Position numbers and translations under genes: made by a program. A stretch of 7,880 nt of DNA, taken from NCBI GenBank assembly GCA_947372405.1, contig CANBTO010000220.1:1-7880 (forward strand), in the 5' to 3' direction. Below are positions 1 through 7,880 of the stretch, piece after piece (position 1 is the stretch's first letter; each line of letters begins with the position of its first letter). The stretch comes from Verrucomicrobiaceae bacterium. Lineage in GTDB: Bacteria > Verrucomicrobiota > Verrucomicrobiae > Verrucomicrobiales > Akkermansiaceae. The notes below the pieces were generated by a model. That model was not told the DNA's origin. It did no database searches and saw nothing but the letters and a program-made list of their open reading frames with translations.

Positions 1-415
1 GATCAAGCGGATTGGCGGCCGTGGCCATGTCGAGCGAGGGGTCGTTCGCCATCGTTTCGGCGAGTTCGTCGATGAGGGCGGGGTCGATGAGTGGTTCGTC
101 ACCCTGGATATTGACGATGTGGGTGGCACCCGGTGAGGATCGAAGCGCCTCGGCGATGCGGTCGGTGCCGGTCGGGTGCTCGGAAGAGGTCATCACGGCC
201 CTGCCTCCGAAGGCCTGGACGGCGGCAAGGATGCGTTCGTCGTCGGTGGCGACAATGATTTCGTCGAGCCGCGAACATTGTTGGCAGCGCTCCCAGACAT
301 GCTGGATGAGGGGTTTCCCGGCGATGAGATGGAGGGGCTTGCCGGGGAAACGGGTGGAGCCCCAGCGGGATGGCAGGACGCCGAAAATGCGGATGTTGGG
401 ATGGGAATGAGGCAC
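1..415 (-). CDS. kdsB: 3-deoxy-manno-octulosonate cytidylyltransferase (CMP-KDO synthetase), 5' part only
   Basis: The enzyme joins CTP and KDO to give CMP-KDO and pyrophosphate in the cytoplasm, activating KDO for LPS inner-core assembly. About 138 codons are visible; family members are usually near 250 residues, so a little over half is present and the C-terminus lies left of the window. Seen in the translation: the N-terminal nucleotide-binding signature around residues 13-28 (VLPSRWGSTRFPGKPL), VATDDERI near 55-62, HPTGTDRIAEA near 80-90, and NIQGDEP at 102-108, whose Asp corresponds to the metal/CTP-binding Asp of the family. The start chosen is GTG at 415-413, which puts the first beta strand at the expected distance; I saw no ATG in this frame at a suitable position. 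No strong Shine-Dalgarno sequence precedes it. The gene is divergent from the pseudopilin gene at 871 and is probably unrelated to it in function. Confidence 0.93.
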   Translation of the reverse strand, partial: MPHSHPNIRIFGVLPSRWGSTRFPGKPLHLIAGKPLIQHVWERCQQCSRLDEIIVATDDERILAAVQAFGGRAVMTSSEHPTGTDRIAEALRSSPGATHIVNIQGDEPLIDPALIDELAETMANDPSLDMATAANPLD

Positions 416-759: not shown

Positions 760-842
760 TTTGTCGCAAATGACTCCTCAAAAGTAATTGATCTGGGAAA
801 AATCCGCCATAGGATCGCATTTGTACTCACCAAGTATTGCAA
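760..842 (+). repeat. Conserved 83-base leader block, copy 1
   Basis: This non-coding block matches 6517-6599 at 67 of 83 positions without a gap by hand alignment. It ends 28 bases before the ATG of the first giant pseudopilin gene. The best conserved segments are its left end (TTTGTCGCAAAT), the TCAAAAG segment, ATTGATCT, the A-run followed by CCGC, and its right end (AAGTATTGCAA). The block contains the promoter candidate at 788-815. The second copy has an in-frame TAA (6588-6590) upstream of its own ATG, which argues that the conservation is regulatory and not coding. Confidence 0.8.
788..815 (+). promoter_or_regulatory. Sigma-70-like promoter for the pseudopilin operon
   Basis: TTGATC at 788-793 (-35) and TAGGAT at 810-815 (-10) are separated by 16 bases. 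The same arrangement, TTGATC/16/TAGCAT, recurs at 6545-6572 before the paralogous gene. Transcription would start near 822, giving an untranslated leader of about 50 bases before the ATG at 871. The match between the two copies is the main support; the -10 differs from consensus at TAG(G)AT. Confidence 0.6.
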
Positions 843-870
843 CCCTAATTCGAACCGACGCGTCGAACCC

Positions 871-3800
871 ATGATCCCCTTCTCATGTCCGAAGAACAAA
901 AACCAAGGATTCGCCTTGGTCGTCACTCTTTCGCTCATGGTTTTGCTGACTTTGATAGCGGTGGGATTGCTAGGTCTCTCGACGGTGTCTCTGCGCAGCA
1001 GCTCGCTGGGCACCGACCAGTCTGTAGCCCGTGCGAACGCGCGTCTGGCGCTGTTGCTGGCGATTGGCGAACTCCAGAAAAGCTCCGGCCTGGACACTCG
1101 CGTCACCGCCCCTTCAAGCATTGTCGATCCGAACAGCCCACCCCTCACAGGCGTTTGGAAAAGCTGGGAGGGCTCGGATCACGACAGCCAAGGGCGACCG
1201 ACGGTGCCGGTCTACGCAGCAAAAAAAGAATCTGACAGCAATAGCGGGCGCTTTCTGATGTGGTTGTTTTCAGGGGCCGAGCAAGCAAAAGCGCCGACAA
1301 TTACGGGAAGCCTTGTCTCCAAAACACCCATCTCAGGCAGCGTTCCGTTACTGTCCAAGGGAACTCTCGGCACAAGCAATGACCTTCAAGTTCATCTGGT
1401 TCCGCAACGCGTGAACCCAAATTCCAATGTTTCAGGCACTCAACTGAGCGGCAGCTATGCATGGTGGGTGAGTGGCGAGAATCAGAAGGCACGACTGAAC
1501 CAGCCATACAATCCCCGCACAGACAACGCCGCAGGATGGTCTGAAATGGCCAAAACGCACGCCGGCTCCGATCCCAAGCCCTTCGGCTTGGAATCCCTGC
1601 TCAATGATCCGGAGAACCATACCCCGGACCCGAACAATCCCAAATCCGCGAGCAAGGCGGTCTCCCTACGCACGACGGAACTCCTCGTTAACGCAAACCC
1701 CGCAAAGCCGCAACAGAGTTTCCATGATCTCTCGACATCGTCCGTCGGCCTGCTCACCAACTCCGCCACCGGTGGCTGGCGAAAGGATTTGTCGATTCTC
1801 ACGGAAAGGTGGGACTCCATCAACGCCAGCTATGCGGGCGGCGCACTCCCCCTGTTCCGCCTCAGCCCGAGCGCGGGGGCGACCACCGTAGCGCGCAAGC
1901 CGACCGAAACGAATCCAACTGCGAGCCAGTCCATCTTCTATCCTTGGAGTGCCTATATACCCGCGACGACGAAGAACAAGGCAAGCCCTTTCCCCACTTA
2001 TTATATGGAACAACACGGCGCCGTGACTTCATGGCAGTCGCTCGTGGATTATGCAACAAGTTACAAGATCGTGGACTACAACCCATCCACAGGGGTTGGA
2101 TCAGTTCCGCTGACTTGGTCCAGAACCCACAGGGATCCCTATGGTCCTTCAGGCGGCAACTTTTCGGATAAGGATCTTTACAACTATCTGCACAAAAATC
2201 AGAGATCTCCGGTTCTGGCTCGTGTGCAATGGGTGTTCAAAGTCCGTTCAAGACGTCAAACTCCGGCCGATCCCAATACCAAGTTCTTCATCGACCTGCT
2301 GGTCACTCCGGTATACACATTATGGAACCCCCACAACGTGGCGATCAAAATCGACGAGAATTACGCGGTTGCCATGAACAAGACCATGTCGGTTGCGATT
2401 GCCTTTGCAAAAGGCTCCGAGGCGATCAATTACACCGAGTCACCTGATGTTTCCACCTTGTTCAGAAGGTATATCTGCGGCAGCATTTACGATCTGGAAA
2501 ACAACACCCAGTACGACAATGCGATGCCAGGGAACTACAAACAACACTGGGAACAGTCGAACGGTCAGGCAGCCGGCTTCCCGCAGTCCATTACCCTTGC
2601 TCCCGGGGAAGCGAGACAGTTCAGCCTCGCGGCCAACGCAGCCACTGGAAATACGGGAGTCATGGGTGTTCTCAAGGAGGGTTACGATGGCGCGAACGCA
2701 TTCGGTTTTGCCGGCATCAGCAGTGGACAGGTTAAAGAGATCAGGAATAATTTCCTTAAGAGCGACACGCTGAAAATCGCGATGCGGTTCGACAATATCA
2801 CCCGACTGGGAGCCGATCCCACCAAGCAGGGGCCGGGACTCTATATGTCCTTCGGACGCTGGGCGGGCCCTGACCCGGCAAATCCCACCAGTGCGGGCAA
2901 CAACCGATATCTGGGTGACTCATTTGCCAACTACACGATGCTCACCAATTTGGATTTCTCCAAGGCGTATTGGAATGAGCCCCCGGATTTGCCGCAGTAT
3001 CCGGTCCTCGCGATCGAAGGCAACGGCAGCAATCCTCCATGGACACCGGTCTTTTCAATCATCTTGGGGCCACGGCTGACGGTTGGCGCGGGTGCCGGCA
3101 AACCAGCAAATCGTCCCACCAAAGGATTGCTGCAAAACAGTCCTTTCGCCAGCGGTGTGCTGACCACCTCGCAGAAGTTGTCCACCAATCATCCGGCGAA
3201 TCTTGCCTTCGACTTTTCCTATTTCGGACATCAGCCGAATAGCGACACCCTGCCTGAAGAAGGCATACCGGGCTACATTGCTTCAGGCAATCAGATAGGT
3301 AACGGCCTGTCCCGCCTGATCATGGGGGAAATTCCATTGAGGCCGATTGCGTCGCTCGCTGAGTTGCAAGGATGGGACTTGCGTGCCCGCAACCCGATTC
3401 CGCCCTTCCAATACAACATTATCGGAAACAGCGACGTGAACCCAATGCTTCCGAAAGACGATGTCATTCCGGATCGGAGTGCCGCAGCCGCCACGAACCG
3501 CCAGCACGATGACGCGTATTGCGCCAACCATCTCCTGTTCGATGATTGGTTCTTCTCATCGATCGCTCCCGAGCCGCAGGATTTCGGCAAAGCCGTCAGC
3601 AAGACCGCGGATGAGGTTTACCGGGCATTTCTCAAAGGCGAGCGCGCACTGGCCAACCGCCCCTACCGCGCAATTCTGGAGGACAAGAACTTGACGGATG
3701 CGGTGGCAACCCAGCGAATCGCGCAGAACCTGAACAGCTCCGACGGCTGGCTCAAGATGGCGTCCCGCCTCGAAGTGGACGGCATGTTCAACATCAACTC

Positions 3801-4593
3801 GACCTCGGTGAAGGCTTGGCGGGCGCTGCTTGGCCATGCACGCAAACAGCAGGTTGCGTATCATTCGAATAACGGCATCACCCTTGCCGCCAACCGGGAG
3901 GATTATGTAGTTTCCCGGATGCCAGTCGCATCCGACATCAAGGCGGGACCGGCCGCCGGAATGGGGGGCGCTTTCCCGAACAGCTCGGAATACACCGGGT
4001 TCCGCACGCTGGATGACAGCCAGCTTGACGATTTGGCGGAAAAGGTCGTGGCACAGGTGCGCAAGCGCGGCCCGTTCCTTTCGCTTTCCGAGTTCATTAA
4101 CCGCAGGCTGGATGGCGACGAGGAACTGGCGCTGGCTGGGGCCGTACAGACGGCTTTGAATTCCCTGACGAAAGACCCGCACAAAGTCCTCAAGGACAAG
4201 AACTATTCGAGCAATACCATGGATCCAACGGTTGCTCAGTGGAAAGACAAATTGAATGGCGCGGACTACAGGTTTGAAAAGGCGGCGGTGGGAATGGATA
4301 CGTTCGGCTTACCCGGTTGGATCCGACAGGCCGACGTCCTTCGGCCGCTCGCACCCGTCCTTTCCGCCCGCGACGACACGTTCACGATCCGAGCATATGG
4401 CGATGCCCGCGATGCGGCGGGAAACGTCAAGGCTCGCGCTTGGTGCGAGGCGACCGTCCGTCGCACTCGCGAGTTCGTCGATAGCACTGACGCCGCCGAT
4501 TCCACGAACCCTCCGGTAGCCGAAGCCAACAAACTGTTCGGTCGCCGATATTCCATAGTATCCTTCCGCTGGCTGTCGCCGGACGAGGTCTGA
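871..4593 (+). CDS. Giant PilX/GspK-like pseudopilin (Verru_Chthon cassette protein A-like)
   Basis: This encodes a 1240-residue protein, far longer than ordinary pilins. Residues 1-13 form a short leader with Lys 8 and Lys 10, ending in Gly13. Phe14 begins a hydrophobic helix (about 14-38: FALVVTLSLMVLLTLIAVG), as in type IV prepilin-like proteins. Position +5 is Val, not Glu, as in PilX and GspK. A conserved amphipathic stretch follows (ARANARLALLLAIGELQK), then YAWWV at 196-200, TLWNPHNV at 483-490 and LAPGEARQFSL at 576-586. Near 970-988 is DGMFNINSTSVKAWRALLG, near 1064-1081 RKRGPFLSLSEFINRRL, and near 1168-1179 DTFTIRAYGDA. That order recalls the GspK domain of type II secretion. It is probably inserted in the inner membrane with a large periplasmic or surface part. 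The ATG at 871 is preferred over an upstream TTG at 670 because the paralogue at 6630 has the identical leader length and a stop codon upstream. No Shine-Dalgarno sequence is seen. The assignment to the cassette A type is from memory of the family, not a search. Confidence 0.85.
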   Translation: MIPFSCPKNKNQGFALVVTLSLMVLLTLIAVGLLGLSTVSLRSSSLGTDQSVARANARLALLLAIGELQKSSGLDTRVTAPSSIVDPNSPPLTGVWKSWEGSDHDSQGRPTVPVYAAKKESDSNSGRFLMWLFSGAEQAKAPTITGSLVSKTPISGSVPLLSKGTLGTSNDLQVHLVPQRVNPNSNVSGTQLSGSYAWWVSGENQKARLNQPYNPRTDNAAGWSEMAKTHAGSDPKPFGLESLLNDPENHTPDPNNPKSASKAVSLRTTELLVNANPAKPQQSFHDLSTSSVGLLTNSATGGWRKDLSILTERWDSINASYAGGALPLFRLSPSAGATTVARKPTETNPTASQSIFYPWSAYIPATTKNKASPFPTYYMEQHGAVTSWQSLVDYATSYKIVDYNPSTGVGSVPLTWSRTHRDPYGPSGGNFSDKDLYNYLHKNQRSPVLARVQWVFKVRSRRQTPADPNTKFFIDLLVTPVYTLWNPHNVAIKIDENYAVAMNKTMSVAIAFAKGSEAINYTESPDVSTLFRRYICGSIYDLENNTQYDNAMPGNYKQHWEQSNGQAAGFPQSITLAPGEARQFSLAANAATGNTGVMGVLKEGYDGANAFGFAGISSGQVKEIRNNFLKSDTLKIAMRFDNITRLGADPTKQGPGLYMSFGRWAGPDPANPTSAGNNRYLGDSFANYTMLTNLDFSKAYWNEPPDLPQYPVLAIEGNGSNPPWTPVFSIILGPRLTVGAGAGKPANRPTKGLLQNSPFASGVLTTSQKLSTNHPANLAFDFSYFGHQPNSDTLPEEGIPGYIASGNQIGNGLSRLIMGEIPLRPIASLAELQGWDLRARNPIPPFQYNIIGNSDVNPMLPKDDVIPDRSAAAATNRQHDDAYCANHLLFDDWFFSSIAPEPQDFGKAVSKTADEVYRAFLKGERALANRPYRAILEDKNLTDAVATQRIAQNLNSSDGWLKMASRLEVDGMFNINSTSVKAWRALLGHARKQQVAYHSNNGITLAANREDYVVSRMPVASDIKAGPAAGMGGAFPNSSEYTGFRTLDDSQLDDLAEKVVAQVRKRGPFLSLSEFINRRLDGDEELALAGAVQTALNSLTKDPHKVLKDKNYSSNTMDPTVAQWKDKLNGADYRFEKAAVGMDTFGLPGWIRQADVLRPLAPVLSARDDTFTIRAYGDARDAAGNVKARAWCEATVRRTREFVDSTDAADSTNPPVAEANKLFGRRYSIVSFRWLSPDEV

Positions 4594-4628: not shown

Positions 4629-5336
4629 ATGAAATCCTTCACGCTCCTCCTCCTACTCTCCTGCCTTCCCGGCCTCTCTCAAGAAGAGAAAAAGGAGCGG
4701 ACCTGTCGCCTTCTTTTCCTGGAACGCCCGCAGGACGCTCCGGCAGAGGGCCAGCTATTTGACGGGACCTCCTCCCATAAGGTGAGCCTGTCCGGCATGA
4801 ATTTTTCCGAAGTAGTCAAGTTGCCCGATGGTGATCTGGTGCTGGGGATGACCGCCGATCCGGTTGCGACGCCGGAGGAATTCCCCAAGGGTGCCCCCAC
4901 TGTAACGATCCCCGCGCAGATTACCGATCTCTATCTCATTGTAGCCAGTGACCCGGAAAACAAGGTTTTACCAATCCGGATGCTCCCGCTGGACGTAGGT
5001 GGTCAGAAACTCAAGGCCGGGGAGACCCTCTGGATCAACCTCACCGGCCACTCCATAAAGGCAATGCTGGGCCAGGAACCCCTCACTGTCCCCCCCCGCG
5101 GGAAAGTCGTGGGCAGGCCGCCGCTTGCCGCCAGCGGCTATTACAAGGCGGCGTTTCTCTATCAGCCGGACGCGCAGGGCGAGTTTCTCCCCATCATGCG
5201 GAAATCGTGGTGGTTCGATGGGAAGAGCAAAAATCTGGGTTTCATCATTGCTTCCGGCGGGCGTTTGCCCAGTATCTTTACGTTTCGCGATTACCGGGAT
5301 GCGGAGGAACCGAAGAAGCCGGGAAGCCCGGAATGA
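4629..5336 (+). CDS. Secreted protein of unknown function, tandem paralogue 1
   Basis: 235 residues with an N-terminal signal peptide (MKSFTLLLLLSCLPGLSQ). The LLSC segment could be a weak lipobox with Cys12, so a lipoprotein is possible; otherwise signal peptidase I would cut near residue 17-18. The mature part is rich in predicted beta strands and has no further membrane segment. Landmarks are MNFSEV, SDPENKVLP, GETLWINL (131-138), SGYYKAAF, and KSWWFD (192-197) followed by KSKNLGFII. It is about 57% identical to the next protein over about 200 residues without gaps. I do not recognise the family. The gene starts 35 bases after the giant pseudopilin gene, so the two are probably co-transcribed. 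An alternative ATG at 4593-4595 overlaps the upstream stop codon (TGATG) and would add 12 Arg/Pro-rich residues before the signal peptide; coupled translation from there is possible. No Shine-Dalgarno sequence precedes either start. Confidence 0.82.
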   Translation: MKSFTLLLLLSCLPGLSQEEKKERTCRLLFLERPQDAPAEGQLFDGTSSHKVSLSGMNFSEVVKLPDGDLVLGMTADPVATPEEFPKGAPTVTIPAQITDLYLIVASDPENKVLPIRMLPLDVGGQKLKAGETLWINLTGHSIKAMLGQEPLTVPPRGKVVGRPPLAASGYYKAAFLYQPDAQGEFLPIMRKSWWFDGKSKNLGFIIASGGRLPSIFTFRDYRDAEEPKKPGSPE

Positions 5337-5373: not shown

Positions 5374-6075
5374 ATGAGATTTCCGGTCTTCGCAACGCTC
5401 CTGTTATCGTGCCTCCCTGCTTTCTCAGCGGGCGATGGCGGGAAACGCGCATGCAGGATCATCTTCCCGGATCGTCCGCGCGACGCGCCAACGGAAGTCT
5501 ATCTGTTCGATGGAACGGCGTCCCGAAAGGTGGAACTGCCAAACATGAACTTTTCAGAGGTGATCCGTTTGCCTTCCGGCAAGCTGGTGCTTGGCATGGC
5601 GGACGCACCCGTTGCCAAGCCCGACCAGATTCCACCCGGCGCCCCCACTGCGGAAATCGCAAACAACGTCGGCGACTTCTATCTCATTGTGGTGAGCGAT
5701 CCGGATAACAAAGTTCTGCCACTTCGGATTCTACCTGTCGATGCAGGCGACGAGCGCCCCGAACCAGGGCAAACCCTCTGGATCAATCTTTCGGAGCGTG
5801 CCATTTCAGGGACGCTTGGCAACGAATCCATCGATGTTCCCGCAGGAGCAAGGGTTCTCGCCAAGGCACCGCTGCCTGTGAGTGGCTACTACAAGGCGGA
5901 ATTTCTCTTCCGGGCCAAGGACGAGACCAGCTTCCAGCCGGTCATGAACAAGTCATGGTGGTTCGATGCCAAAAGCAAAAACCTCGGATTCATCATCGAC
6001 ACGGGCAGTCGTCTGCCAAAAATCTTTTCTTTCCGTGACTATCGTGTCGCCGAACCTGCCAAGCGCAAGGATTGA
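5374..6075 (+). CDS. Secreted protein of unknown function, tandem paralogue 2
   Basis: 233 residues with a signal peptide (MRFPVFATLLLSCLPAFSA) and a good signal peptidase I site after Phe-Ser-Ala. LLSC is again present as a possible but poor lipobox. The body matches the preceding protein without gaps: MNFSEV, SDPDNKVLP, GQTLWINL, SGYYKAEF, KSWWFD (from Lys193), KSKNLGFII, FRDYR. The charged C-terminal tail differs between the two. The frame stays open far upstream into the first paralogue, but the ATG at 5374 is chosen because it places the signal peptide exactly as in the neighbour. It begins 37 bases after the previous stop, consistent with a three-gene operon from 871. The aromatic and hydrophobic conserved core suggests a binding or structural role outside the cytoplasm, but no catalytic motif is seen and no function is assigned. 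Confidence 0.85.
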   Translation: MRFPVFATLLLSCLPAFSAGDGGKRACRIIFPDRPRDAPTEVYLFDGTASRKVELPNMNFSEVIRLPSGKLVLGMADAPVAKPDQIPPGAPTAEIANNVGDFYLIVVSDPDNKVLPLRILPVDAGDERPEPGQTLWINLSERAISGTLGNESIDVPAGARVLAKAPLPVSGYYKAEFLFRAKDETSFQPVMNKSWWFDAKSKNLGFIIDTGSRLPKIFSFRDYRVAEPAKRKD

Positions 6076-6516: not shown

Positions 6517-6599
6517 TTTGTCGCAAATAAGTTCTCAAAAGGCATTGATCTTGCAAAAAACCGCTCTAGCATCACACATGTAATCACTAAGTATTGCAA
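6517..6599 (+). repeat. Conserved 83-base leader block, copy 2
   Basis: This is the partner of 760-842, with 67 of 83 bases identical and no gap. It ends 30 bases before the ATG of the second giant pseudopilin gene, two bases more than in copy 1. Copy 2 contains an in-frame TAA at 6588-6590 relative to that gene, so it is not translated as part of it. Conservation extends both upstream and downstream of the promoter hexamers, suggesting a bound regulator or a functional 5' untranslated region. Confidence 0.8.
6545..6572 (+). promoter_or_regulatory. Sigma-70-like promoter for the second pseudopilin gene
   Basis: TTGATC at 6545-6550 and TAGCAT at 6567-6572 are separated by 16 bases, the same geometry as the promoter at 788-815. 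Initiation would be expected near 6579, leaving about 50 untranslated bases before the ATG at 6630. Confidence 0.6.
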
Positions 6600-6629
6600 A
6601 ACTCGTTTCCTCCAAAACTTGTTGAATCC

Positions 6630-7880
6630 ATGAAGAAACTCTTAAACCCGAAGAAACAAGACCAAGGATTCGCTCTGGTCGTCACTCTCTCGCTCATGGT
6701 GCTGCTGACATTGGTGGCGGTAGGCTTGCTTGGCCTCGCGACGGTGTCGCTTCGTAGCACCACGCAAGGAGCAGCTCGGGCCGAAGCCCGTAGCAACGCA
6801 CGACTGGCACTGATGATGGCACTTGGTGAGCTGCAAAAGGAAATGGGACCCGACCAACGCGTGTCCGCCTCCGGCGACATCACCGACCCGGATGCCACGA
6901 AGGTTAAGAACCCGCACTGGACCGGCGTTTGGAACTCTTGGAAAGCTGGAACCAACGAAGCGAGTCAACACAGTACGATCGGAATCCAGCCGGACGGTGC
7001 CATGCATCCCTCCTATGATACCAATCGCTCGACCAGTTTCCGCTCGTGGCTTGTTTCTCAAAATCCGATCGCCCCATTGGCGGTTGGCACGGCCAAATCG
7101 TCCGATTTGGCAGGCGTTCCCATGCCCGACAAAAATGCCAGCGCGGCACGACTCGTGGGACAGACATCGCTCGGAAGCACGGGCAACGCCGCCGATTTCG
7201 TCAGCGCGCCTCTCCTCAAGGTGCCATCCAGCTCGGCGGCTACCGGTGCCTACGGTCGCTACGCCTGGTGGGTCGGCGACGAAAGCCAGAAAGCCCGCAT
7301 CATCAACGACGCCTATCCGGCAGCCACCACGCTCACATCGGCGGAAAAGATCTTTCGCTCCCAAGCTCCAGGATCGACCGGCACCACCACCGTCAAGGGA
7401 CTCGAAACCATGGCGGATGATACGCAACTTAAGGGAATTCCTTCATTGCGCACCATCGATCTCGTCAAAGGAGCAACAGGCAAACCCGCGGACAATTTCC
7501 ATGCTATCACTCCTTTCTCCTATGGCGTGCTCGCGGACGTGCGCGAGGGCGGTCTCAAGCGCGACCTTTCAACGCTGCTGGAACGCCCGATCAGCACCAG
7601 CGAAACGGGCGACGAGTACATGCTTTATAAGTTCAATACCAAGGATCAGTGGATGGGTCTTACGAATCAAGAATGCGTGCCGATCCAGGACCTTGCCGCT
7701 TACTATCAGCTCTACGACGGTAACCAAACAAATCAATCCGGTATCAATCACTCGGCATGGAATGAAGGTTCCCGCTATTCTTCCAACGTACTGAGCAACG
7801 GCATTCAAATCGTGTCGCCAGACTACGGCTACACAACCGGTCCCGATCCGTTTTTCGCCAAACAAGCCTCCGCACTCTAC
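6630..7880 (+). CDS. Giant PilX/GspK-like pseudopilin paralogue, 5' part only
   Basis: The frame from the ATG at 6630 is open for 417 codons to the last base, so the 3' end is outside the window. The leader (MKKLLNPKKQDQG) is 13 residues, ending in Gly13, with Phe14 starting the hydrophobic helix FALVVTLSLMVLLTLVAVG, the same arrangement as in the protein at 871. Position +5 is again Val, not Glu. The next conserved stretch, ARSNARLALMMALGELQK, and YAWWVGDESQKAR (Ala212-Val215 within it) and GGLKRDLSTLLERP match the first protein; the regions between are more divergent and of different length. The start is fixed by the shared leader length and by the in-frame TAA at 6588-6590. No Shine-Dalgarno sequence is seen. 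By analogy it may encode over a thousand residues and be followed by secreted accessory genes, but this is not visible here. Confidence 0.87.
   Translation, partial: MKKLLNPKKQDQGFALVVTLSLMVLLTLVAVGLLGLATVSLRSTTQGAARAEARSNARLALMMALGELQKEMGPDQRVSASGDITDPDATKVKNPHWTGVWNSWKAGTNEASQHSTIGIQPDGAMHPSYDTNRSTSFRSWLVSQNPIAPLAVGTAKSSDLAGVPMPDKNASAARLVGQTSLGSTGNAADFVSAPLLKVPSSSAATGAYGRYAWWVGDESQKARIINDAYPAATTLTSAEKIFRSQAPGSTGTTTVKGLETMADDTQLKGIPSLRTIDLVKGATGKPADNFHAITPFSYGVLADVREGGLKRDLSTLLERPISTSETGDEYMLYKFNTKDQWMGLTNQECVPIQDLAAYYQLYDGNQTNQSGINHSAWNEGSRYSSNVLSNGIQIVSPDYGYTTGPDPFFAKQASALY

What the first reader, a model, noticed from the sequence alone, without database searches (positions are those of the whole stretch)
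760..842. Non-coding leader conserved between two giant paralogous genes
The block at 760-842 matches 6517-6599 at 67 of 83 positions with no gaps, and both contain TTGATC/16 bp/TAGNAT at the same offset. The non-coding block is about as conserved (81%) as the coding DNA for the hydrophobic helix just downstream (82 of 98 bases at 902-999 versus 6661-6758). Such conservation suggests a shared regulon signal that travels with this gene family.
Basis: seen in the sequence. Interest (0 to 1): 0.7.

Follow-up and report, generated by a model that had tools for sequence, protein, structure and literature searches.

The report
Shared operator of giant pseudopilin genes
The conserved stretch before two giant pilin-like genes carries a protein-binding-site-like DNA signal that recurs in front of related pilin-like genes scattered over the chromosomes of many Verrucomicrobia, so these genes are probably switched on or off together by one regulator that is still unknown.

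Summary
In detail: 760-842 matches 6517-6599 at 67 of 83 positions (at most 44 in 300 shuffles). Four-fold synonymous sites of the two genes match at only 36%, so the leader is constrained. The whole block and its TTGATC/TAGNAT part were not found before relatives' genes. Its 3' end is different: it holds a shared element, TGTAnnTACA, often repeated every 11 bp. A weight matrix trained only on relatives' upstream regions ranks the two leaders as the top three of 15,716 window positions. Upstream of 78 giant paralogs in six genomes it occurs (at most 1 mismatch) in 38, against 15 of 524 other genes. It holds in two unseen genomes (8 of 20, 3 of 11) but not in four small, Akkermansia-sized genomes (0 of 6). 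A strict tandem scan of 260 genomes gave 15 sites: 3 before giant genes, 7 before small prepilin operons resembling Verru_Chthon cassette D-B-C. Best reading: an operator of a pseudopilin regulon joining a minor-pseudopilin operon with 11-20 dispersed giant GspK-like genes. The regulator is unknown; AraR-like GntR proteins fit the site's form, but evidence is mixed.

The parts
760..842 (+). Leader copy A: conserved non-coding block before giant pseudopilin gene 1
   Evidence: 67/83 identical to 6517-6599; four-fold sites of the genes only 36%
6517..6599 (+). Leader copy B: the paralogous block before giant pseudopilin gene 2
821..843 (.). Operator-like element A: TGTACTCACC at 822-831, second weak box GTATTGCA at 834-841 (11 bp on)
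   Evidence: ranks 3 (-) and 10 (+) of 15,716 positions with a matrix trained without the window; EM posterior 0.92 in a run that included the window
6578..6600 (.). Operator-like element B: TGTAATCACT at 6579-6588, second weak box GTATTGCA at 6591-6598
   Evidence: ranks 1 and 2 of 15,716 positions; EM posterior 0.99 in a run that included the window
788..815 (+). Possible weak promoter A: TTGATC-16-TAGGAT; would put the start at about 822, on the operator
   Evidence: sequence only; below tool threshold; ATTGATC not clearly enriched in relatives (8 of 154, shuffles mean 4.6, max 9)
6545..6572 (+). Possible weak promoter B: TTGATC-16-TAGCAT
   Evidence: sequence only; below tool threshold
871..4593 (+). 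Giant pseudopilin-like protein 1 (1240 aa; GFALV hydrophobic N-terminus, GspK-like)
   Evidence: 1318 homologs; weak GspK match to the N-terminus
6630..7880 (+). Giant pseudopilin-like protein 2 (N-terminal 417 aa; runs off the window)
   Evidence: 39% aa identity to protein 1 over 395 aligned codons, 88% in the TM segment; weak Verru_Chthon_A and GspK matches
4629..5336 (+). Small exported partner protein 1
   Evidence: homolog directly downstream of 41 of 67 giant genes with room to show it
5374..6075 (+). Small exported partner protein 2, paralog of the previous one
   Evidence: pairwise alignment

Best explanation
The 3' quarter of each leader (821-842, 6578-6599) is a binding site of a DNA-binding regulator. 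The site is a palindrome, TGTAnnTACA, often in tandem with an 11-bp period, so that dimers would sit side by side on one face of the helix. The same element stands close before many dispersed giant pseudopilin (GspK-like) genes (median 95 nt before the GFAL codons), and before a small operon of minor pseudopilins (Verru_Chthon cassette D-B-C-like, weakly resembling GspH-I-J). The most likely mechanism is common control by one regulator of a shared minor-pseudopilin set and its many alternative giant subunits. In the window the site would lie at or just after the transcription start of the weak TTGATC/TAGNAT promoter, which suits a repressor. Shown by computation: the constraint on the leader, the shared element, and its specificity for pseudopilin genes. 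Inferred: protein binding, repression rather than activation, and a single regulator. Unknown: the regulator and its signal.
For: Leader 81% identical where four-fold sites are 36%. Motif found de novo in 75 family upstream regions: log-likelihood gain 141 against 48 in two Markov shuffles and 99-104 in two sets of control upstreams; leave-one-out score >=9 in 34 of 75 versus 8 of 338. TGTANNTACA, at most 1 mismatch: 38 of 78 versus 15 of 524, p 2e-26; exact 13 of 78 versus 0 of 524; G129 and G098, from which no upstream had been used to find the motif, 5 of 12 and 6 of 12. Eleven permuted palindromes reach at most 13 of 78. Pair spacing peaks at 11 bp: 13 pairs, at most 2 at any other distance up to 40. 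Window not in training, yet its two leaders rank 1-3 of 15,716. Unseen G155 and G179: score >=10 in 8 of 20 and 3 of 11, controls 15 of 458. In two complete genomes the exact site occurs 7 and 2 times, and 3 and 1 of these precede giant genes (gene places). 15 of 19 strong sites in 837 kb precede giant genes (not blind, see Tried and rejected). In 260 genomes, 10 of 15 strict tandem sites precede pseudopilin genes, 7 of them of a second family. RNA folding of the leaders is not significant.
Against: The window's sites are imperfect: 2 mismatches each to TGTANNTACA, and copy A scores only 1.1 in the first leave-one-out. Some 20-40% of family upstreams yield no site (EM fraction with a site 0.59-0.78 over the runs). 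In complete G155 none of the 4 exact sites precedes one of the 20 giant genes. Six upstreams from four small genomes (2.7-3.2 Mb) score 0 of 6 at >=10. The tandem pattern is hardly commoner than its reversed control: 25 against 36 strand hits in 15 genomes at up to 2 mismatches, clearly above it only in G006 (14 against 4), and 19 against 12 strand hits in 260 genomes at up to 1; only its location is special. Four of the seven prepilin-operon sites are the same 21 bases in three genomes, two of them in one genome, so they are not independent. Pilin-like genes outside the giant family carry the element in only 7 of 39. AraR-like regulator genes do not carry the site as a class (3 of 31, p 0.07). 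No binding or expression data exist.
Confidence: 0.77

Rival explanations
1. The regulator is an AraR-type protein (GntR winged helix plus LacI-type sugar-binding domain), so the pseudopilin genes answer to a sugar or polysaccharide signal.
For: B. subtilis AraR sites read At(T/A)tGTaCGTAcaa(A/T)T (PMC4218819, passages), which contains TGTAnnTACA; AraR has this two-domain build (PMC4494728, passages). Proteins with PF00392 and PF13377 stand by giant genes in L016, G129 (L155) and G006 (L276; its PF00392 match is below the cut-off); two distant relatives lie beside giant genes in G003 (places), and a 152-aa stretch with a sub-cut-off GntR match in L026.
Against: Of 31 AraR-like upstreams only 3 carry the site (p 0.07). 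Giant genes beside such regulators often lack a clear site: L016 and, in G003, L234 and L237 are not among the 87 anchored upstreams (L166 in G006 and L178 in G129 are). G098 and G002 have the site but only one distant relative each.
Confidence: 0.2
2. The two leaders are alike only because the locus was duplicated recently or converted; there is no function.
For: The two copies lie 5.8 kb apart in the same orientation, a setting that allows conversion.
Against: Four-fold sites between the genes are near saturation (33 of 92 identical) while the leader is at 67 of 83. A matrix from other genomes picks out the same spots.
Confidence: 0.06
3. The element is part of a promoter for a special sigma factor rather than an operator.
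For: It lies close to the start codons, where -10/-35 boxes would be. A regulon of exported proteins would suit an alternative sigma factor.
Against: The core is palindromic and tandem with an 11-bp period. Both TGTATTTACA and TGTAAATACA stand before genes at like positions (by eye). No column outside the motif exceeds 0.14 bits in 87 anchored sequences.
Confidence: 0.12
4. The leader works as an RNA (5' UTR element).
For: It is conserved and precedes the start codon.
Against: No Rfam family at the gathering threshold. RNA folding z-scores 0.07 and 1.45. The shared element is a DNA-type palindrome.
Confidence: 0.03
5. The element is a recombination or insertion site by which pseudopilin cassettes spread.
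For: The genes are dispersed paralogs, 11-18 per genome in six genomes.
Against: It also precedes D-B-C-like operons of another family. The downstream borders of the cassettes were not examined.
Confidence: 0.04

Closest known systems
AraR (GntR family) ara boxes of Bacillus subtilis
   Same: Operator core tGTaCGTAca has the form TGTAnnTACA; paired boxes bound cooperatively (PMC4218819, passages)
   Different: Here the targets are pseudopilin genes, boxes recur every 11 bp, and the binding protein is not known
Verru_Chthon cassette (TIGR02596/02598/02599/02600, proteins D, B, C, A)
   Same: D-B-C-like pseudopilin operons carry the same element; window protein 2 weakly matches protein A at its N-terminus
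   Different: The matches to these four models are below the curated cut-offs; most giant genes seen are dispersed, not in the operon
Type II secretion minor pseudopilins GspH-I-J-K
   Same: Operon order weakly resembles H-I-J; the giants weakly resemble the GspK N-terminus
   Different: The GspK model has 307 positions; here the proteins have some 1240 aa and 11-20 N-terminal matches per genome in the ten larger genomes searched
PhoB/OmpR-type response-regulator sites (recalled, no call)
   Same: Direct repeats with an 11-bp period
   Different: Units here are themselves palindromic; the known motifs differ

Membership tests
Operator of a regulon shared by the gene family | Motif enriched upstream of members against other genes | tested here: met
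   38 of 78 versus 15 of 524; hold-out 11 of 37 versus 15 of 458
Operator of a regulon shared by the gene family | Site present in the window's own leaders, found without training on them | tested here: met
   ranks 1-3 of 15,716
Operator of a regulon shared by the gene family | Bound by a protein and alters transcription | not testable with these tools
   needs footprinting and reporters
AraR regulon | Site of the form TGTAnnTACA | tested here: met
   against the consensus in PMC4218819
AraR regulon | AraR-like gene linked to targets | tested here: inconclusive
   next to giant genes in several genomes, but sparse in G098 and G002
AraR regulon | Regulator's own promoter carries the site (as for B. 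subtilis araR) | tested here: not met
   3 of 31, p 0.07
Sigma-70 promoter at TTGATC/TAGNAT | At least 9 of 12 consensus bases | tested here: not met
   0 found in both leaders
Structured RNA leader | Rfam match or fold better than shuffles | tested here: not met
Verru_Chthon cassette protein A (TIGR02600) | Score over the curated cut-off 332.3 | tested here: not met
   protein 2 scores 25 bits and is partial; protein 1 not listed
T2SS GspK (NF037980) | Score over the curated cut-off 130 | tested here: not met
   20.2 and 21.4 bits, N-terminal stretch only

The most novel reading that the evidence does not exclude
These bacteria build one pseudopilus with exchangeable giant tips: a D-B-C (GspH-I-J-like) operon supplies the common minor pseudopilins, 11-20 dispersed giant GspK-like proteins, each often paired with a small exported protein, supply alternative tips, and one master regulator binding TGTAnnTACA tandem sites keeps scaffold and tips in step.
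Probability: 0.3. Interest if true: 0.8.

Novelty: new member of a known kind. Interest (0 to 1): 0.6.

Why it matters
Giant pseudopilin-like proteins are numerous in Verrucomicrobiota (1318 homologs in one search; 11-20 N-terminal matches per genome in the ten larger genomes searched), and I met no described function for them. The operator ties them, by a property independent of their protein sequence, to a minor-pseudopilin operon. That points to one shared machine and gives a handle to find its regulator, its inducing condition and the rest of its parts. Six searches of an open-access library on this subject (one search listed 15 of 117 papers; subscription papers not covered) listed no title or abstract beginning on it.

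Tried and rejected
Whole block in relatives: 67 upstream regions scored with a matrix from the two window blocks gave no credible copy; the best, L032, has -4.6 bits, though that is above its own ten shuffles (at most -14.9). 260 genomes by blastn: short matches only. Plasmids, 501-nt query: no match. Phages, 83-nt query: only short weak matches.

Promoter overlap with the operator was counted, but the shuffled control destroys the neighbouring half-site and so is biased; I draw no conclusion from it.

Depletion of TGTANNTACA against its reversed control (7 versus 51, 2 versus 40, 4 versus 25) may only reflect the rarity of TA steps; it is not used as evidence.

TIGR02600 search of 4 genomes at E 1e-10: nothing, and nothing in the tool's controls, so it does not show absence. 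Not used: structure prediction, fold search, two further protein searches.

Training overlap: the matrix was trained on 144 upstreams that include G006 and G129, so the 837-kb scan is not blind for them; the G006 contigs in it were chosen because they hold family genes or earlier hits, and one of its 13 giant genes is a fragment (226 aa open frame). Blind tests are the window, G155 and G179 and, as far as I know, the 13 genomes; the pattern was derived partly from loci of G006, G009, G002 and G003; G129 and G098 had given none. Control genes were called by a simple longest-ORF rule, not by an annotator; a few controls are the other side of the same sites.

Full report
What was claimed and what is there. 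The two blocks are real and ungapped, 67 of 83, well beyond shuffled upstream pairs (at most 44 in 300). They end sharply on both sides. They are not N-terminal coding extensions, since the distance to the start codon is 111 nt in one copy and 113 in the other. They do not fold as RNA better than shuffles (z 0.07 and 1.45), and nothing in Rfam reaches its threshold in the window.

Is the conservation meaningful? The two genes are old paralogs: 39% amino-acid identity over 395 aligned codons, 36% identity at 92 four-fold sites. Against that the leader's 81% is exceptional (p 1.3e-9). So the leader is under constraint of its own, or has been converted.

The gene family. Protein 1 (871-4593) has 1318 homologs at E 1e-3 among 7985 scored candidates; of the 120 listed, those whose name tells an organism are nearly all Verrucomicrobiota (one is filed under Anaerolineales). 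NCBIfam gives only weak N-terminal matches, to GspK (both proteins) and to Verru_Chthon cassette protein A (protein 2). A scan of reference genomes returned 80 loci (153 candidates encoded a relative; the best 80 were kept), all titled as Verrucomicrobiota members. No whole genome is held for the window, and no near relative was found among 260 genomes of one family: the best near-full-length identity is 53%.

The whole block does not travel. Of 67 upstream regions scored with a matrix of the two blocks, none is a credible copy. 260 genomes listed only short pieces by blastn. Sub-motifs TTTGTCGCAAA, CTCAAAAG and CATTGATCT are at chance level in 154 relatives' upstreams.

A shorter element does travel. 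De novo search on 75 non-redundant upstream regions (78 found, 3 near-duplicates dropped) gives tGTAatTACAatGTAaatACA. The gain is 141 against 48 in shuffles and about 100 in two sets of control upstreams (the control sets found other, unrelated patterns). With leave-one-out, 34 of 75 score >=9 against 8 of 338 other ORFs. A first genome scan with the tandem pattern (15 genomes, up to 2 mismatches) gave 20 loci, 8 of them (7 genes) right before giant genes; in number the hits did not exceed the reversed control (25 against 36 strand hits), except in G006. Six genomes hold 11-18 giant paralogs each, 78 in all. TGTANNTACA with at most one mismatch precedes 38 of 78, against 15 of 524 control genes; exact sites 13 of 78 against 0 of 524; eleven permuted palindromes reach at most 13 of 78. 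By genome: 11 of 13, 5 of 12, 6 of 12, 4 of 12, 5 of 11, 7 of 18. Pairs of such boxes are 11 bp apart far more often than at any other distance (13 pairs against at most 2). The core lies at a median of 95 nt before the GFAL codons (10-90%: 165-60).

Does the window carry it? A matrix trained on 144 upstreams with both window copies left out was run over both strands of the window. The three best of 15,716 positions are 6578 (+), 6578 (-) and 821 (-), which are the two leaders and nothing else. A shorter matrix gives the same three at the top of 15,718 (6573 -, 816 -, 6573 +). This is the strongest single result for the finding. The sites are not perfect: TGTACTCACC and TGTAATCACT each miss two of the eight fixed bases, and copy A scored only 1.1 bits in the earlier leave-one-out.

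Does it hold in unseen genomes? In G155 and G179, score >=10 in 8 of 20 and 3 of 11, controls 15 of 458. In four small genomes (six upstreams, Akkermansia-sized, identity not told by the tool) 0 of 6. In complete G155 the exact palindrome occurs four times and never before one of its 20 giant genes, so there the sites are degenerate. In complete G098 and G129 it occurs 7 and 2 times, 3 and 1 of them before giant genes (with places). In 837 kb of G129, G006 and G155, 19 sites score >=13; 15 lie before 13 genes of the family (G006 and G129 were in the training set).

A second gene family. The strict tandem pattern (at most one mismatch) has 15 places in 13 of 260 genomes, 19 strand hits against 12 of its reversed control, but 3 lie before giant genes and 7 before small prepilin operons. 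Four of the seven (L418, L420, L421, L426) are the same 21 bases in three genomes, two in one genome, and so are not independent. The first genes of five of the seven have Verru_Chthon cassette protein D as best match, below its cut-off (E 9e-8 to 3e-12); that of L419 matches it only weakly (4e-4); L420 was not scanned. The other five places lie by unrelated genes, one of them before an exported protein that looks LamG-like by eye. A search for protein D in 12 genomes gave 49 matches, 30 of which came with DNA. Of 39 pilin-like upstreams read from these, 7 reach score 10, against 15 of 458 controls (p 8e-4): D-like first genes in G006, G003 (two loci), G155 and G180 (15.6-21.0), a GspG-like single gene in G009 (15.6) and another pilin gene in G098 (11.0). 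G129 has one at 9.6. In the other five genomes (G002, G179, G095, G020, G016) no gene read here reached 10. Views of 15-19 kb show D-B-C-like operons in G006, G180 and G003 with the element just upstream and no giant gene in the operon (those of G180 and G003 scanned). A second G003 locus is different: there a 1104-aa protein with weak GspK and Verru_Chthon A matches follows some 1.3 kb downstream of the D-like gene (L464). D, B and C weakly resemble GspH, GspI and GspJ, and the giants the N-terminus of GspK.

Mechanism. A palindrome of 10 bp repeated at one helical turn is what cooperative dimers bind. AraR of B. subtilis binds tGTaCGTAca (PMC4218819, passages), and AraR-like GntR/LacI-type proteins stand next to several giant genes. 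Against AraR: such regulators lack the site at their own promoters (3 of 31), and G098 and G002 have very few of them. The regulator is therefore left open. If the weak TTGATC/TAGNAT pair is the promoter, the operator begins at the transcription start, a repressor's place; this rests on sequence alone, below the tool's threshold.

Verdict. The leader is a real, constrained regulatory region. Its family-wide part is a TGTAnnTACA-type operator of a pseudopilin regulon in Verrucomicrobiota, seen before two kinds of pseudopilin genes. The most interesting consequence, a common minor-pseudopilin set with many exchangeable giant tips, is a hypothesis with a clear test.

Noticed in passing
4629-5336 and 5374-6075: Two paralogous exported proteins of some 235 aa lie between the giant genes; homologs follow 41 of 67 giant genes directly, so giant gene plus small partner is a conserved pair.
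   Followed up: partly
L016, L155, L276 and other loci; G006 and G129: AraR-like GntR/LacI-type regulators are very numerous in some of these genomes (26 matches in G006, 17 in G129, 1 in G098) and some stand beside giant genes.
   Followed up: partly
866-873 and relatives: Start codons of the family often stand in AACCCATG: AAACCCAT in 13 of 78 upstreams against 0.6 expected; AACCCATG in 6 of 78 against 1 of 498 control genes. Few show a Shine-Dalgarno-like box (4 of 78; controls 64 of 498).
   Followed up: partly
L178 and L171 (upstream regions in G129 and G006): Two giant-gene upstreams from different genomes share another block, ACTTTATnAGATACAGT with TTGTTGTTCGACA, seen by eye; possibly a second class of leader.
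   Followed up: no
L162, L164, L165, L169 (G006): Four family genes of one genome share AATGTAGGTATATTGTA, a variant of the element.
   Followed up: no
L276:4470 and L278:10033: Strong sites also precede a 621-aa exported protein that looks lyase-like by eye and a 2339-aa exported protein, so the regulon may reach beyond pseudopilins.
   Followed up: no
2-415 (-): The window begins with part of a 3-deoxy-manno-octulosonate cytidylyltransferase (kdsB) gene on the opposite strand.
   Followed up: no
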